Assembly: GCF_014250675.1 (NCBI RefSeq)
Contig: NZ_JACHTG010000004.1
Coordinates: 1,427,501-1,491,500 of the forward strand
DNA length: 64,000 nt
Direction of reading: 5' to 3'
Source of the DNA: Cetobacterium sp. 8H
GTDB lineage: Bacteria; Fusobacteriota; Fusobacteriia; Fusobacteriales; Fusobacteriaceae
Below the pieces are notes generated by a model. That model ran no database searches and had not been told where the DNA came from. It saw nothing but the letters and a program-made list of their open reading frames with translations. Positions 22,396 to 29,916 of this stretch are shown here, in pieces. The position numbers were made by a program, and so were the translations under genes. The stretch's first letter is position 1; each line of letters starts with the position of its first letter.

Positions 22396-23211
22396 ATGAT
22401 GTATGTTGATCCTAATAAATGTATAGGATGTGGGTTATGTGTAAAAGATTGTTTTGTAAAAGATATTGAAATGATAGATGGAAAAGCGCGAATAAAAAAT
22501 ATAACTTGTTTTAAGTGTGGGCATTGTATTGCTGTATGTCCCAAAAATGCGGTATCTACTGATGAATATGATATGAAAGATGTTATAGAATACAATAAGG
22601 AAAGTTTTGAAATAGAACCTGATACACTTTTAAATTTTATAAAATTTAGAAGAACAATTAGACATTTTATGGATAAAAAAATTGAAAGAGAAAAAATATT
22701 AAAGATAATAGAAGCCGGAAGATTTACAGAAACAGGAAGTAATAGTCAAAATGTATCTTATATTGTTGTAGAGAAGGATATTCAGAAGCTGAGAGAATTA
22801 ACTTTAAAAAGTTTGAATAATCTAGGAAAAACTATATTGGAAACTTCATCAAATACATTGTATAAAAGGTATGCAAAACGATGGATTAATATGTATGAAG
22901 AATATAAAAATAATCCTAATGGACAAGATGAATTATTCTTTAAAGCTCCCACAATTATTTTGGTGGTTTCAGAATCACCAATAAATGGAGGGTTAGCATC
23001 ATCAAACATGGAACTGATGATAAACGCATTGAAACTTGGAACTGTATTTAGTGGTTTCTTTGTTAGAGCAGCACAAGACAATGAAGAGATTAGAGAGTTT
23101 TTAGAGATAAAAGGTGAAAAACAAATAGTTACTTGCATGGTTATTGGGTATCCAAATATAAAATTTAAAAGAACAGTTCCTAGGAAAAAAGCTGAAATAA
23201 TATTTAAATAA
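22396..23211 (+). CDS. ferredoxin-nitroreductase fusion protein
   Basis: Two-domain redox enzyme of 271 residues. ATG at 22396 follows AAGG with normal spacing; the ATG at 22378 has none. Residues 1-55 hold two [4Fe-4S] motifs, CIGCGLCVKDC and CFKCGHCIAVCP. Residues 80-271 are a nitroreductase domain: FRRTIRHFMDKKIERE, AGRFTETGSNSQN (FMN binding), and FSGFFVRAAQDN. In known relatives the iron-sulfur part feeds electrons from ferredoxin-type donors to the flavin. Probably cotranscribed with the nitroreductase upstream. Confidence 0.9.
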   Translation: MMYVDPNKCIGCGLCVKDCFVKDIEMIDGKARIKNITCFKCGHCIAVCPKNAVSTDEYDMKDVIEYNKESFEIEPDTLLNFIKFRRTIRHFMDKKIEREKILKIIEAGRFTETGSNSQNVSYIVVEKDIQKLRELTLKSLNNLGKTILETSSNTLYKRYAKRWINMYEEYKNNPNGQDELFFKAPTIILVVSESPINGGLASSNMELMINALKLGTVFSGFFVRAAQDNEEIREFLEIKGEKQIVTCMVIGYPNIKFKRTVPRKKAEIIFK

Positions 23212-23320
23212 AAAATATTAGCTAAAATAAAGGAAGTCTTGAAAAAAATAGTATAACCATAGCACAAACGTTTGAGTAGATTCATTCTATAAAACGAAGC
23301 TCCAATTAATTTGGAAGCTA

Positions 23321-23348
23321 AAAAAACCTCCTATGTGGAGGTTTTTTT
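23321..23348. terminator. bidirectional terminator
   Basis: Eleven-base perfect arms AAAAAACCTCC (23321-23331) and complement (23337-23347), loop TATGT; serves the nitroreductase pair (plus) and the thioredoxin-like gene (minus). Confidence 0.9.
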
Positions 23349-23356
23349 GTTTTATA

Positions 23357-23611
23357 TTATTTGCACCCACAACAAGATTTTGATGCCATTTTTTCTTCTA
23401 CAAATTTCTCTATTCTATCAAGTCCAACGTATGTAGTTACACCATTACAGTCTTCAGCAACTAAAGTAGGTACAGATCTGATGCCATATTTTACACCTAA
23501 TTCTTCAGAATCATCTAAATTAATGATCTCAACTTCTTTTTTATCTTTTAATAATTCCTTAGCAGGTGTGCAATATTTGCAAGTAGGTAATGTAAATAAC
23601 ATAATTTTCAT
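23357..23611 (-). CDS. thioredoxin/glutaredoxin-like protein with Cys-rich tail
   Basis: Small redox protein of 84 residues. Start at 23611 (MKIMLFTLP) lies eight bases after GGAGG; a longer reading lacks a ribosome site. Thioredoxin fold: active site TCKYC near residues 11-14, cis-Pro segment RSVPTLV near 46. The tail ends MASKSCCGCK, with three Cys in four residues, an odd addition that could bind metal or take part in thiol transfer. It diverges from the deleted trxB at 23811, so the pair was probably once a thioredoxin plus its reductase. Confidence 0.82.
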   Translation of the reverse strand: MKIMLFTLPTCKYCTPAKELLKDKKEVEIINLDDSEELGVKYGIRSVPTLVAEDCNGVTTYVGLDRIEKFVEEKMASKSCCGCK

Positions 23612-23731
23612 AATTTGTTCCTCCATTAATTTAATTTTATTGTTCTTTTTCAAGATAAGTTTATATTATCATTAATTTTTTTTTTAAACAATTAGGCACT
23701 TTTTAGTAACCGGTAATTATTTTTTTAGGTG

Positions 23732-23747
23732 GTTACATTTTAGTAAC
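23732..23747. promoter_or_regulatory. GTTAC/GTAAC inverted repeat between trx-like gene and trxB remnant
   Basis: GTTAC (23732-23736), six bases, GTAAC (23743-23747). A further AGTAAC copy sits at 23705-23710. The GTTAC-GTAAC pattern is of the kind bound by HxlR-type thiol-sensing regulators; no such gene is in the window. Confidence 0.4.
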
Positions 23748-23810
23748 TAATTTACATTTTAAAAATAAAGTTGTATCCTAAGAAAATAAGAGAAAGTTTT
23801 AGGAGGGTAC

Positions 23811-24246
23811 ATGAAAAATAAAAAGTTTGATTTAATTATTGTAGGAGCAGGACCTGCTGGTTTAGCAGCTTACTAGTGATGATAAGAGTATTGATATAGA
23901 TTCTAAAATAAAAGTAGTTTTGAATGCAAAATTGGAAGAAATAAAAGGAAAGGAGTATGTGGAGAGCGTAGAAATAAATGAAAATGATGAAAGAAAAAAT
24001 TATAATTTAGATTACACTTTTTTATATCTAGGAACAAAAAATATGACAGAACTATACAGAGATGTCGCCACATTAAATACTCAAGGATATTTATTGACAG
24101 ATGATAGAATGAAAACTAATGTTGATGGTGTTTTTGCAGCAGGAGATATAAGAGGAAAAGGTACTAGGCAAGTAACGACTGCTGTTTCTGATGGGACAAT
24201 AGCAGCTATTGAAGCGATTAAATATATTACTCAAAATAGAATATAA
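23811..24246 (+). pseudogene. trxB: thioredoxin reductase (trxB), broken by internal deletion
   Basis: A good ribosome site (AGGAGGG) and ATG at 23811 start MKNKKFDLIIVGAGPAGLAAY, the FAD-binding opening of thioredoxin reductase, then TAG at 23874-23876. From about 23878, one frame over, the C-terminal third continues: DSKIKVVLNAKLEEIKGK, YTFLYLGTKN, then TNVDGVFAAGDIRGKGTRQV, the terminal FAD motif. About 160-170 residues, including the CxxC active site and NADPH-binding fold, are missing when compared with the usual 310-residue enzyme. The junction is sharp, so a deletion explains it better than point decay. The C-terminal fragment alone (TTG at 23920) is unlikely to be functional. Confidence 0.85.
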
Positions 24247-24272
24247 ATAATAAGAGTTAAAGGAGATTAGCT

Positions 24273-25817
24273 ATGAAATTTGATTATTTTGAAAATGGTA
24301 GAGGAAGTGCAAAAGTACAATTTAGTTCAAAAGCAATTGATGAAATGATATACGAGTTTATGGAAAGGGAAGGAATTCCAGGGATGTCTTTGGCAATAGT
24401 TCAAGCTCCGTATATTCCAAGAGTAGTTGGGTATGGAGTGACAGATATTGAGTCTAAAAAACTTGTTTCTAATAGAACTGTTTGGCCAATAGGACATATA
24501 TCTCAAGGGTTTACAGCGGTAGCTATTATGCAACTTTTCGAAAAAAATATGTTAAATTTGAATGATTTAATTTCAAAGTATTTAAAAAATATTCCAAATG
24601 AATGGAAAGATATAACTATATTCCAGTTATTACAACATAGTTCAGGAATTCAAGATTATATGAAAAGTGAATTGTATAATTTAGATAAAACATATAATGT
24701 AAAACAGTTAATAGAATTGATTGCGGATAAGAAGTTAAGTTTTATTTCAGGAACTAAAGTTGAAATGAGTGCTACAAATTTCTTACTATTAACAGAGGTT
24801 GTAGAAATAATTTCAGGATTAAGCTATCATGAGTTTGTAAAAAAATATCAAATTGACTATTTGCAGTTAAAAGAAACATTTTTTACAGAAGATTTAAAAA
24901 ATTTAAAACAAGAAGACTTATCTTTAAGTAATGGATTACATGAATTGTTTAAAAAAGATAGAGATTATATAAATCCTGCAGAGATTACAAAAGGATATAA
25001 AGAGGTAGATGGGGATTATATTTTAAGACCAAACCCTACTCAAAATAATGCAGCAGGAAGAGGATTTTCAGATGTTTGGGCATCTGCTGAAAATATAAGC
25101 TTCTGGGATATTGGTTTAGCAGGCTCAATTCTAATTTATAAACCAGAAAATAGAGATCTTATATATAAATCTACAAAACTTTCAAATGGAGATGTTGTTC
25201 CAGGAATGTCAGGATGGAGTTTTTATAATCATAAGGGATTGATGGATATAAAAGGAAGTATTCCAGGATATTCTACATTTTTAAGTAGATTTACAGACAA
25301 AAGTGAATTGGTTTGTGTGACTCTTATTGCAAATAAAGAAGGAATTGATTTAACAGAATTGGCAAGAAAAATAGCTGGAGGATTTGATAGAAATTTAGCA
25401 AAAATTAAAAATCCAGAAAAATTTTATACATATGAAAGTTCTTTTAATTTTAAAGAAACACTTGAAAGAGTTGAAAAGGAAATCGAGAAGTTAAATATTC
25501 CAATATTTACAAAATTTGACCATGCTTTAAATGCAAAAAATGTTGGATTAGATTTGAGAGAGTCAACAGTAGTTGTATTTGGGTCTCCTAAAGTAGGAAC
25601 ACTTTTAATGCAAGAAGATCAGACATTAGCTTTAGAATTACCTTTAAAAATTTTAGTTTTTGAAGATACCGAAGGAAGTGTTTTTATTGAATTTAAACGT
25701 TTAGAAGGTCTAGTAGAAGATTATAAAATAGATAATAAGAAAACTATCCAAAATATGAATAAACTACTGGAGAAAATAACTAGAAAATCTGCAAATATTT
25801 ATACTTCTATTGAATAA
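24273..25817 (+). CDS. beta-lactamase-fold pseudoenzyme fused to DUF302
   Basis: 514 residues. Residues 15-370 follow the serine beta-lactamase/class C esterase fold (AIMQLFEKNMLNLNDLI, LLQHSSGIQDYM, GSIPGYSTFLSRF). The catalytic residues are absent: the family S-x-x-K is H75-I-S-Q78 in WPIGHISQGFTA, the Y-x-N motif is M165-S-A167 (TKVEMSATNF), and the third motif is IKG at 326-328. Residues 385-510 match DUF302: VVVFGSPKVGTLLMQ, LALELPLKILVFED. No signal peptide, so cytoplasmic. ATG after AAAGGAG, 27 bases after the trxB remnant. Probably a binding or regulatory protein, not a hydrolase; function unknown. Confidence 0.85.
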   Translation: MKFDYFENGRGSAKVQFSSKAIDEMIYEFMEREGIPGMSLAIVQAPYIPRVVGYGVTDIESKKLVSNRTVWPIGHISQGFTAVAIMQLFEKNMLNLNDLISKYLKNIPNEWKDITIFQLLQHSSGIQDYMKSELYNLDKTYNVKQLIELIADKKLSFISGTKVEMSATNFLLLTEVVEIISGLSYHEFVKKYQIDYLQLKETFFTEDLKNLKQEDLSLSNGLHELFKKDRDYINPAEITKGYKEVDGDYILRPNPTQNNAAGRGFSDVWASAENISFWDIGLAGSILIYKPENRDLIYKSTKLSNGDVVPGMSGWSFYNHKGLMDIKGSIPGYSTFLSRFTDKSELVCVTLIANKEGIDLTELARKIAGGFDRNLAKIKNPEKFYTYESSFNFKETLERVEKEIEKLNIPIFTKFDHALNAKNVGLDLRESTVVVFGSPKVGTLLMQEDQTLALELPLKILVFEDTEGSVFIEFKRLEGLVEDYKIDNKKTIQNMNKLLEKITRKSANIYTSIE

Positions 25818-25888
25818 AAATGTAGGATTTAATTCTTATATTTGGTAGAAAGTAATATAAGTTTATTGACGTGAAGGAGGAAATAAAA

Positions 25889-26119
25889 ATGGAAATGAAT
25901 AAAACAGAGGCTTTAAATCTTTATAAACAATATTTTAATGATAATGAATTTACAGAATTTTTAGAATCTACTTATATTTTTGAAGATTCAGATGATTTTA
26001 AAGATTATTATCCTGAAGGAACACCTAATCTGTTTTCAAAAGAAAAAAATGAGTTTTTATTTACTGCTTACAAGCTAAACGAAAACATTCTGTCAATAAC
26101 TATAGAAAATAAAAAATAG
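25889..26119 (+). CDS. small acidic protein of unknown function
   Basis: 76 residues, start at 25889 (MEMNKTEALN) with AAGGAGG eight bases upstream; the GTG at 25871 precedes that site. Highly acidic, with many Asp, Glu and Phe (YIFEDSDDFKDYYPEG). No signal peptide or membrane segment, no family recognised. It lies 71 bases after the beta-lactamase-fold gene and 45 before a lipoprotein gene, all on the same strand. Confidence 0.7.
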   Translation: MEMNKTEALNLYKQYFNDNEFTEFLESTYIFEDSDDFKDYYPEGTPNLFSKEKNEFLFTAYKLNENILSITIENKK

Positions 26120-26164
26120 AGAGATGTTATCTATCTTTTAGGGTATAGCAGTAGGAGGGGTATT

Positions 26165-26590
26165 ATGAAAAAACTAGCATTAACTTTAGCAACTATCTTT
26201 TTACTAGTAGGGTGCAATAATGATAGTAAGGCACAAAAAATATCAATGGATCCTTCTAGTCCATACAAAGAATATTCTATAAATGATACTAAAGTATCAA
26301 ATCTTTTAGAAGAAAACATTTTAAAAATAGAAGCTGAAAAATATGGATTTGATTTAAAAACATCTTCTGCACATATGATTAGCTTAAAAAAAATTGGAAG
26401 TTATGGCTCTGGTGATATTAAAATAATTGCTTTTTTAAATTCTAAAGGCATTAAAGCGGCCGAAGATAAAGGGTATATTAATATAAATCGAGTTGTTTCT
26501 TATACCTGTAAATTTGAATATAGTTATAAAACTGATAGATATCTTTGGACATCTGATTACCCTTATGCATCCACAAGTAGTTTATTTTGA
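26165..26590 (+). CDS. small lipoprotein of unknown function
   Basis: 141 residues with a clear lipoprotein signal, MKKLALTLATIFLLVGCNND, lipidated Cys17. AGGAGGGG precedes the ATG. The mature part has no motif I can name; it contains SYGSGDIKIIAFLNSKG and an aromatic C-terminus (TSDYPYASTSSLF). It ends at a strong terminator. Confidence 0.8.
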   Translation: MKKLALTLATIFLLVGCNNDSKAQKISMDPSSPYKEYSINDTKVSNLLEENILKIEAEKYGFDLKTSSAHMISLKKIGSYGSGDIKIIAFLNSKGIKAAEDKGYININRVVSYTCKFEYSYKTDRYLWTSDYPYASTSSLF

Positions 26591-26596
26591 TGAATT

Positions 26597-26624
26597 AAAG
26601 TCTCTCATTAAGAGAGACTTTTTA
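26597..26624. terminator. bidirectional terminator between lipoprotein and rhodanese
   Basis: Ten-base arms AAAGTCTCTC (26597-26606) and complement (26612-26621), loop ATTAA, then T run; it abuts the stop of the minus-strand rhodanese. Confidence 0.85.
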
Positions 26625-26954
26625 TTTAGAAGTTTCTTTAAATTTATTAAAACCACCAATTAAGTTAAAAACAGAATAGTTATTTTTAAGAAGGATAGAT
26701 TGAGCTTTACTACCAGTATTACCACCATTGCAATATACAACTATCTTTTTATCCTTTGGGATTTCTGTAATTCTGCTTTCAATTTGGGAAAAAGGAATAT
26801 TAACTGCTCCAGGTATATGAGCTATCTTGTATTGATCTTCCGTTCTTGCATCAATAATAAAGTAAGAATTAATATTATTATTTAATTCTTCAGCAGATAT
26901 AAGAGGGGTTGTATCATTTTTAAAATTATGTAATAAACAAACTTTATTAGTCAT
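26622..26954 (-). CDS. single-domain rhodanese-like sulfurtransferase
   Basis: 110 residues. Rhodanese fold markers: LISAEELNNNINSYFIIDARTEDQY, HIPGAVNIPFSQIESR, and active Cys in VVYCNGGNTGSKA near residue 74, then NLIGGFNKF. The active-site loop has CNGGNTGS and lacks the Arg that many rhodaneses have, so substrate preference may differ. Starts ATG with AAGGAG upstream. Divergent from an ArsR-type regulator with shared operator sequence, which suggests it is the regulator's target. Confidence 0.9.
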   Translation of the reverse strand: MTNKVCLLHNFKNDTTPLISAEELNNNINSYFIIDARTEDQYKIAHIPGAVNIPFSQIESRITEIPKDKKIVVYCNGGNTGSKAQSILLKNNYSVFNLIGGFNKFKETSK

Positions 26955-27124: not shown

Positions 27125-27397
27125 ATGAAAAAGCAATTACAAATTTTAAAAGCACTAAGTCATCCTGTTAGGCTAAACATAATTTATGGTTTAAAAGACT
27201 CAGAATTTAAGTGTGTTTGTCACTTGCAAGAGTTGGTAGAAAATCAAGAAAAAGTATCACAATCAAGTCTTTCCCAACACCTTAAAATTTTAAGAGATGC
27301 AAATATAGTGGAAACTAAAAAAGTTGGTGGCTGGGTACATTATAGCTTAAAAAATAAAAATGTAATTAAAATATTAGAAGAATTAAAAGAGTTATAA
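27125..27397 (+). CDS. ArsR/SmtB-family transcriptional regulator
   Basis: Winged-helix repressor of 90 residues. LKALSHPVRLNIIYGL is the ArsR opening helix; the recognition helix is SSLSQHLKILRDANIV, followed by the wing GGWVHYSLK. The helix that binds metal in ArsR carries FKCVCHL here (two Cys separated by one residue). This could bind a thiophilic metal or metalloid or be a persulfide switch; the divergent rhodanese favours sulfur sensing, by inference. AGGGAGG precedes ATG. It probably represses both divergent genes. Confidence 0.9.
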   Translation: MKKQLQILKALSHPVRLNIIYGLKDSEFKCVCHLQELVENQEKVSQSSLSQHLKILRDANIVETKKVGGWVHYSLKNKNVIKILEELKEL

Positions 27398-28927: not shown

Positions 28928-29021
28928 TGGCGGAAGCGTATAGGAATCGAACCTACCAGCGATTTGACTCGCCAAAACAGTTTTGAAGACTGCTGAGTAC
29001 ACCAGTAACTCATCCACTTCC
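28928..29021 (-). tRNA. selC: tRNA-Sec (anticodon UCA)
   Basis: A 94-base tRNA with encoded CCA (plus 28928-28930). Acceptor GGAAGTGG pairs with the 3' strand ending CGCTTCC; T-loop GGTTCGATTCC; long variable arm with GCGA/TCGC stem; anticodon loop CTTCAAA gives UCA (plus 28984-28986) on a six-pair stem. The extended acceptor and long extra arm with a UCA anticodon identify selenocysteine tRNA. It agrees with selA, selB, selD nearby and a UGA codon in selD. Confidence 0.95.
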
Positions 29022-29034
29022 AATTCACAAAATT

Positions 29035-29043
29035 ATTATATCA
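29035..29043 (-). promoter_or_regulatory. extended -10 promoter of selC
   Basis: Minus-strand TGATATAAT, about 14 bases before the tRNA 5' end, with no clear -35. Suggests selC has its own promoter just after the DUF3343 gene. Confidence 0.55.
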
Positions 29044-29050
29044 TATAAAT

Positions 29051-29326
29051 TTAAAAATTAAAAGTAGAAAAATGCTTTTTAAAGCCATTTTTTTCACAAA
29101 GATAAAAAGAATAAAGTGATTCTTCAATTTTATTATTTTTTAAAATGTTCAAAATAGTTGAACTATCTTCGATATTAGCTTTTATAGATAGACCACAGCT
29201 TGCTTTAAGTTCTCCAGGTAGTGGAATAATTCTAACCTCTAGATTAGATTCTAGTAAAAGTTTTTCAACTTTCATAACCAAATGAGTGGAATCAATTGTA
29301 ATAATTAAAAATTTTTCGATATTCAT
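29051..29326 (-). CDS. DUF3343 protein, putative Se/S carrier
   Basis: 91 residues. Contains STHLVMKVEKLLLESNLEVRIIPLPGELKASCGLSIKAN; the PLPGELKASCGLS stretch with its Cys is the DUF3343 signature (LP-x(4)-S-CG). Members are often found beside YedF and are thought to carry selenium or sulfur, but this is not proven biochemically. ATG overlaps the yedF stop (TAATG), so it is translationally coupled. Confidence 0.88.
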   Translation of the reverse strand: MNIEKFLIITIDSTHLVMKVEKLLLESNLEVRIIPLPGELKASCGLSIKANIEDSSTILNILKNNKIEESLYSFYLCEKNGFKKHFSTFNF

Positions 29327-29916
29327 TATGGTCTAATCACCTTAGTGGCCTTCATCTGTTTCTCAATTATACTATACATATTTGTTACAGATCCAACAGA
29401 TATATTATTTTCAAGATGGTAGAAATTAGCACAAGCACCACAAGAAAGTATTTCAACACCTCTAGCTTCAAGAGATTTTAAATCTTTAACAGAAGTATCA
29501 CAAGTTGACGTTAAAAAAACTCCTCTGTTATAAAACAAGATAGTTTTAGGTAACTCTTCCATTTCTGTAAGAGTATAAATAAATCCTTTCATCAGAGTTT
29601 CTCCTAATGCAGAATCTCCTTCTCCCATTTTATCGCTTGCGATAACGATAACTATGTTATCTTTTGAAGATTTCTCTATAGAATCAGAATTATTTTTAGA
29701 AGGTATACCTTTTACAATCTCTATCAAGTAAATTCCATTTTCTTCTTTTGTAGAAAAAGAAAACCCCATTTCTTTAGCAAATTTTTCAATATTTTCTTTT
29801 GAGATTTTATTATCAATAGAAACAACAATAGTTCCTTCTGAGATTTCTTTTAAGGCATTTTTCGTCATAATAACAGGCATAGGACATGTTTGCCCAATCG
29901 CATTAACTTTAATCAT
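29326..29916 (-). CDS. yedF: YedF, sulfurtransferase-like selenium metabolism protein
   Basis: 196 residues in two domains. Residues 1-72 are TusA-like (IKVNAIGQTCPMPVIMTKNAL with the CPxP Cys11). Residues 85-196 are DsrE-like, with SDKMGEGDSALGETLMKGFIYT and a Cys-pair SCGACANFYHL near 160. This two-domain form is the YedF group found in selenium-using bacteria. AAGGAAG precedes ATG. First gene of a yedF-DUF3343-selC stretch. Role in selenium trafficking is from genome association. Confidence 0.9.
   Translation of the reverse strand: MIKVNAIGQTCPMPVIMTKNALKEISEGTIVVSIDNKISKENIEKFAKEMGFSFSTKEENGIYLIEIVKGIPSKNNSDSIEKSSKDNIVIVIASDKMGEGDSALGETLMKGFIYTLTEMEELPKTILFYNRGVFLTSTCDTSVKDLKSLEARGVEILSCGACANFYHLENNISVGSVTNMYSIIEKQMKATKVIRP

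What the first reader, a model, noticed from the sequence alone, without database searches (positions are those of the whole stretch)
24273..25817. Beta-lactamase-fold protein that lost all three catalytic motifs and is fused to DUF302
Fold-defining segments are intact, yet S-x-x-K is H-I-S-Q, Y-x-N is M-S-A, and the third motif is IKG. DUF302 is attached at the C-terminus, a combination I do not recognise. The pattern suggests a ligand-binding pseudoenzyme. The DUF302 half is well preserved, so the protein is not simply decaying.
Basis: partly seen in the sequence, partly recalled or inferred. Interest (0 to 1): 0.62.

Follow-up and report, generated by a model that had tools for sequence, protein, structure and literature searches.

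The report
Conserved dead beta-lactamase fused to DUF302
This gene belongs to an old, widespread bacterial protein family in which a beta-lactamase-shaped enzyme has permanently lost its catalytic residues and been joined to a small domain of unknown function; databases label it a 'serine hydrolase', but its gene neighbours in other bacteria point to sulfur chemistry instead.

Summary
Window 24273-25817 (+) encodes 514 aa with PF00144 (3.6e-32) and C-terminal DUF302 (2.4e-16), and all three catalytic motifs of serine beta-lactamases and DD-peptidases are gone. It is not a recent mutant: I found 82 homologues of (nearly) full length (40-58% identical) in ten other phyla, and none of the 83 sequences has SxxK, YxN or K/HxG. 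The nearest unfused relatives keep SxxK where a motif was found. In relatives the dead domain is under strong purifying selection (dN/dS about 0.04-0.13, like DUF302), and the beta-lactamase fold is predicted intact (Z 38). The letters HISQ are not conserved; the family motif is [PQ]-[IL]-[ST]-Q. Within Fusobacteriota only this genome has the gene. It sits in a 3.3-kb block that a congener lacks and groups with Bacteroidota copies, so it was probably acquired. Function is the open part. In 17 proteobacterial/acidobacterial loci the next gene is a Tat-signal thiosulfate dehydrogenase (NF052225), and DUF302 lies in published sox clusters, so I favour a non-hydrolytic role with reduced sulfur compounds. 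That is untested, and the window's genome gave no hit for this dehydrogenase. Verdict: a real, overlooked pseudoenzyme family; new variant of a known kind.

The parts
24273..25817 (+). pseudo-beta-lactamase (S12 fold) - DUF302 fusion gene, 514 aa, no signal peptide
   Evidence: (open frame only 518 codons, so no room for an upstream signal peptide)
24260..24265 (+). AAGGAG ribosome-binding site
   Evidence: read directly
24330..25397 (+). S12/class C beta-lactamase fold, residues 20-375
   Evidence: AlphaFold2 pLDDT 92, pTM 0.91; Z 38.8 to 2qmi, 38.2 to human LACTB
24393..24422 (+). family signature AIVQAPYIPR (residues 41-50), first beta-hairpin; lowest entropy of any segment, variable in catalytic S12 proteins
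   Evidence: partly inflated because [LM]AIVQAPY was one of the two search seeds
24495..24506 (+). SxxK position: HISQ (residues 75-78)
24765..24773 (+). YxN position: MSA (residues 165-167)
   Evidence: S166 and A167 invariant in 83 sequences
24909..24983 (+). family-specific insert (residues 213-237) with invariant H223, F226, E237
   Evidence: largely absent from the catalytic S12 relatives aligned
25248..25256 (+). K/HxG position: IKG (residues 326-328)
25314..25316 (+). C348, the only invariant cysteine
   Evidence: 57/57
25410..25814 (+). DUF302 domain with C-terminal helix (Pfam core 25515-25697)
   Evidence: pLDDT 92.8; Z 19.0 to 7tj1, 18.0 to 1q9u, 15.4 to 1j3m
23363..26639 (.). block present here and absent from congener G003 (flanks 3 bp apart there)
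23920..24246 (+). C-terminal remnant of a thioredoxin-reductase-like gene, 27 bp upstream; N-terminal half lost
26622..26954 (-). rhodanese-domain protein, nearby
27125..27397 (+). ArsR-family regulator, nearby

Best explanation
The protein belongs to a monophyletic pseudo-hydrolase family. A class C beta-lactamase/S12 fold lost all acyl-enzyme catalytic residues, most simply once in the family's ancestor, and was kept as a non-hydrolytic module joined to DUF302 (strongly supported by sequence and selection; no activity assay). Most likely mechanism (inferred): DUF302 is the working module, because it also exists alone. The dead cleft serves for recognition or docking of a ligand or partner. 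The pair handles reduced sulfur species (thiosulfate, polythionate or persulfide) alongside dehydrogenases such as the NF052225 thiosulfate dehydrogenase, in the periplasm of most Gram-negatives and, where the signal peptide is absent as here, in the cytoplasm.
For: No SxxK, YxN or K/HxG in 83 of 83 family members from 11 phyla; 100% SH-aLRT for the family against catalytic S12 proteins. dN/dS 0.04-0.13 in the dead domain versus 0.02-0.16 in DUF302. Intact fold, two-domain pTM 0.91. A 17-locus operon with thiosulfate dehydrogenase NF052225, always next gene on the same strand, score above curated cut-off in the four members tested. Other redox/sulfur neighbours: rhodanese directly upstream in L030, an ArsR-rhodanese protein in L055, Trx and TrxR in L039, rhodanese and ArsR near the window gene. 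DUF302 inside sox clusters in PMC5037610 and PMC11034169. Secreted DUF302 proteins without the dead domain in Fusobacteriota, 41-53% identical to the window's DUF302.
Against: The sulfur link comes from one clade (proteobacteria plus one acidobacterial MAG). Gut-type members, including those nearest the window gene, have no consistent partner, and the window's genome gave no NF052225 hit (whose control genomes were also negative). No ligand, activity or partner was measured. The function of DUF302 itself is unknown.
Confidence: 0.5

Rival explanations
1. The beta-lactamase fold is only a structural scaffold (dimerisation, stability, or placing DUF302); it binds no small molecule.
For: Several residues conserved at the old motifs (S/T77, S166, G328) are scaffold residues also found in catalytic S12 proteins; position 165 is variable; the most conserved segment is a beta-hairpin, as could be expected for a contact with another domain or subunit.
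Against: Q78, K327 and A167 are new states yet strongly conserved; a family-specific insert with invariant H223, F226 and E237 is hard to explain by scaffolding alone.
Confidence: 0.25
2. The fold has been given a new catalytic site made of family-specific invariant residues (for example H223, E237, H320, R339, C348), so it is an enzyme of another kind rather than a pseudoenzyme.
For: H223, E237, H320, R339 and C348 are invariant in 57 sequences; the insert bearing H223 and E237 is largely missing from catalytic relatives.
Against: No coordinates were available to show that these residues come together; invariance can have structural causes.
Confidence: 0.2
3. A decaying beta-lactamase gene, or a recent mutant copy in this species.
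For: The window copy sits on a long branch (0.88) and next to a real gene remnant.
Against: The same losses in 83 of 83 homologues; purifying selection on both domains in relatives; intact reading frame and ribosome-binding site. No close relative exists to measure selection on the window copy itself.
Confidence: 0.02

Closest known systems
Peptidase S12 / class C beta-lactamase fold, PF00144 (AmpC, R61 DD-peptidase, LACTB, P. abyssi PBP homologue 2qmi)
   Same: Fold; Pfam score 112 bits; Z 38 over about 330-345 residues
   Different: All catalytic motifs lost, an extra insert with invariant His and Glu, and a C-terminal DUF302
DUF302, PF03625 (7tj1, 1q9u, 1j3m; sox-cluster DUF302 proteins)
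   Same: Pfam score above cut-off, same fold over the whole domain, conserved DH and GTxLM...LPL blocks
   Different: Those are single-domain proteins; here DUF302 is covalently joined to a dead S12 domain
Secreted stand-alone DUF302 proteins of Fusobacteriota (L002, L003, L004, L010, L011)
   Same: 41-53% identical to the window's DUF302, including the C-terminal extension
   Different: No beta-lactamase domain; start with a signal-like segment

Membership tests
Serine beta-lactamase / DD-peptidase (S12) enzyme | S12 fold | tested here: met
Serine beta-lactamase / DD-peptidase (S12) enzyme | SxxK nucleophile motif | tested here: not met
   0 of 83; position 75 P62/Q18/E2/H1, position 78 Q72/N6/H3/C1/E1
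Serine beta-lactamase / DD-peptidase (S12) enzyme | YxN (YSN) motif | tested here: not met
   A167 in 83 of 83 where the Asn should be; the Tyr position is Q, L, M or other
Serine beta-lactamase / DD-peptidase (S12) enzyme | K/H-x-G third motif | tested here: not met
   position 326 I70/V12/S1
Serine beta-lactamase / DD-peptidase (S12) enzyme | beta-lactam or peptide hydrolysis | not testable with these tools
   needs purified protein
DUF302 (PF03625) | curated Pfam score | tested here: met
   59.8 bits against cut-off 23; 56 of 57 members match
DUF302 (PF03625) | DUF302 fold | tested here: met
   Z 19.0, 18.0 and 15.4 to the solved DUF302 structures 7tj1, 1q9u and 1j3m
Operon with NF052225 thiosulfate dehydrogenase | dehydrogenase gene directly downstream | tested here: inconclusive
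   present in 17 of 83 homologue loci; no hit in the window genome (control genomes also negative)

The most novel reading that the evidence does not exclude
A beta-lactamase fold repurposed for inorganic sulfur chemistry: the family-specific invariant residues and DUF302 form a new site that binds or processes thiosulfate, polythionate or protein-bound sulfane sulfur as partner of a thiosulfate dehydrogenase.
Probability: 0.2. Interest if true: 0.75.

Novelty: new variant of a known kind. Interest (0 to 1): 0.52.

Why it matters
Family members are annotated 'serine hydrolase' although they cannot use that mechanism, and they occur in gut, soil and environmental bacteria. The family also gives a concrete handle (a fusion, a defined operon and invariant residues) on DUF302, whose structures were released from 2004 on with no function assigned that I could find.

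Tried and rejected
Viral contigs: two scans, no relative. Conserved neighbourhood in the gut clade: none found; isochorismatase-like genes occur near five loci across the family. Search for fused proteins with SxxK: 294 Planctomycetota genomes gave one family member (767 bits) and then unfused S12 proteins at 141 bits or less, most with SxxK by regular expression; five of the best unfused ones were aligned to the profile and read as ordinary S12 proteins, but not all without a regex match were inspected. 247 genomes of the Bacteroides order gave only the starting genome. Pfam on the operon partner gave nothing; NCBIfam named it. A DUF302-only tree could not resolve whether stand-alone Fusobacteriota DUF302 proteins derive from the fusion. 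Papers holding both DUF302 and 'serine hydrolase': none. Several early DUF302 paper hits were DUF302x false matches. The tree has very long outgroup branches, so the root inside the family is unreliable.

Full report
Observation. The ORF 24273-25817 (+) is real: ATG, an AAGGAG seven bases upstream, 514 codons, TAA. Pfam gives PF00144 at residues 23-208 and DUF302 at 415-475, both far over cut-off. AlphaFold2 on an alignment of 57 homologues gives pLDDT 92 and pTM 0.91 for the whole chain. The first 375 residues match S12 enzymes (2qmi Z 38.8, rmsd 2.6 over 345; LACTB 7v21 Z 38.2, rmsd 2.4 over 327), so Pfam's short match hides a complete fold. The C-terminal 135 residues alone match three solved DUF302 proteins.

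Motifs. Against catalytic S12 proteins from plasmids and from Fusobacteriota the three motifs are replaced: SxxK by HISQ, YSN by MSA, H-x-G by IKG. A scan of one genome per species returned 493 relatives, of which the best 80 were kept; with three plasmid copies and the window copy, 83 usable sequences were aligned (one locus, L088, is frame-broken and was left out). None has SxxK: position 75 is P 62, Q 18, E 2, H 1; position 78 is Q 72, N 6, H 3, C 1, E 1. S166, A167 and G328 are invariant; K327 is present in 75. So HISQ as such is not conserved, but the loss is. The scan was seeded with [LM]AIVQAPY and FTAVA[IV]MQ. The second is a common S12 sequence directly after SxxK, so the scan was not biased against catalytic proteins; but the near-perfect conservation of residues 40-47 and 80-87 is partly by construction.

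Not decay. In pairs of relatives, where synonymous sites were not saturated, dN/dS is 0.04-0.13 in the dead domain and 0.02-0.16 in DUF302. The family is one group with 100% SH-aLRT against the catalytic proteins used. Profile searches show a wide gap: in the genomes searched, family members score 680-830 bits and everything else 141 or less, with only one of the two domains. The closest unfused relatives have SxxK where a motif was identified. The simplest reading is one ancestral loss, fixed along with the fusion; no intermediate was found.

Origin of this copy. None of 97 other Fusobacteriota genomes, 11 of the same genus among them, has the fusion. The window copy groups with Bacteroidota copies (SH-aLRT 95, but on a long branch with unusual composition). 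In congener G003 the sequences matching window 23210-23362 and 26640-26803 lie 3 bp apart, so the 3.3-kb block holding the gene is absent there. Gain by transfer is more economical than repeated loss, but the donor cannot be named.

Location in the cell. Most Gram-negative members begin with a hydrophobic signal-like segment; the Bacillota members, some Legionella, Oxalobacter and the window copy do not. This rests on a simple hydropathy scan with starts taken at the first possible codon, not a signal-peptide predictor. The window frame opens only four codons before the ATG.

Function. Seventeen loci (16 proteobacterial, including three plasmids, and one acidobacterial MAG) have the same Tat-signal protein as the next gene on the same strand. 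Four tested members match NF052225 'thiosulfate dehydrogenase' over its cut-off. I presume this is the tetrathionate-forming type described for A. ferrooxidans AFE_0042 (reviewed in PMC6335251); that identity was not tested. DUF302 genes also sit in sox clusters of Thermithiobacillus (PMC5037610) and Sulfitobacter, there with a 5-aminolevulinate synthase gene (PMC11034169); the Novosphingobium locus L018 also has hemA three genes downstream of the fusion. Scattered rhodanese, ArsR, thioredoxin and rubrerythrin-like neighbours fit a redox/sulfur theme (several of these names are read from sequence, not scored against a profile). Against this, the gut clade shows no stable partner and the window genome gave no NF052225 hit. 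I put about 0.95 on 'cannot work as a serine hydrolase', about 0.45 on a sulfur-related role, and less on any particular division of labour between the domains.

Novelty. Fold and DUF302 are both known; the fusion as a conserved, catalytically dead family is not described in the papers searched, a library that lacks most subscription journals. I file it as a new variant of a known kind.

Noticed in passing
window 23262-23352 (+): Candidate small RNA: three stem-loops ending in an intrinsic terminator (-31.5 kcal/mol, z -6.4); a 90-nt stretch of it is 97% identical in congener G003, with no Rfam match at gathering score. It adjoins the boundary of the block that carries the fusion gene.
   Followed up: partly
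window 23920-24246 (+): C-terminal half of a thioredoxin-reductase-like gene with stops upstream; a gene remnant 27 bp before the fusion gene.
   Followed up: partly
window 28932-29916 (-): tRNA-Sec beside a TusA/YedF-like gene and its small neighbour, so a selenium-related cluster lies about 3 kb downstream.
   Followed up: no
NCBIfam NF002454 and PDB 7tj1: A DUF302-only protein carries the name 'fluoride ion transporter CrcB', apparently because the CrcB model NF002454 includes a C-terminal DUF302-like stretch; the name looks misleading.
   Followed up: no
L003 1982-3215 and L004 1934-2545: Flavodoxin-like secreted proteins follow the stand-alone DUF302 gene in two Fusobacteriota genomes (named from sequence, not scored).
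   Followed up: no
L088 5917-7434: A Legionella copy of the fusion is frame-broken (131 aa, then a separate 302-aa frame), while other Legionella copies are intact.
   Followed up: no
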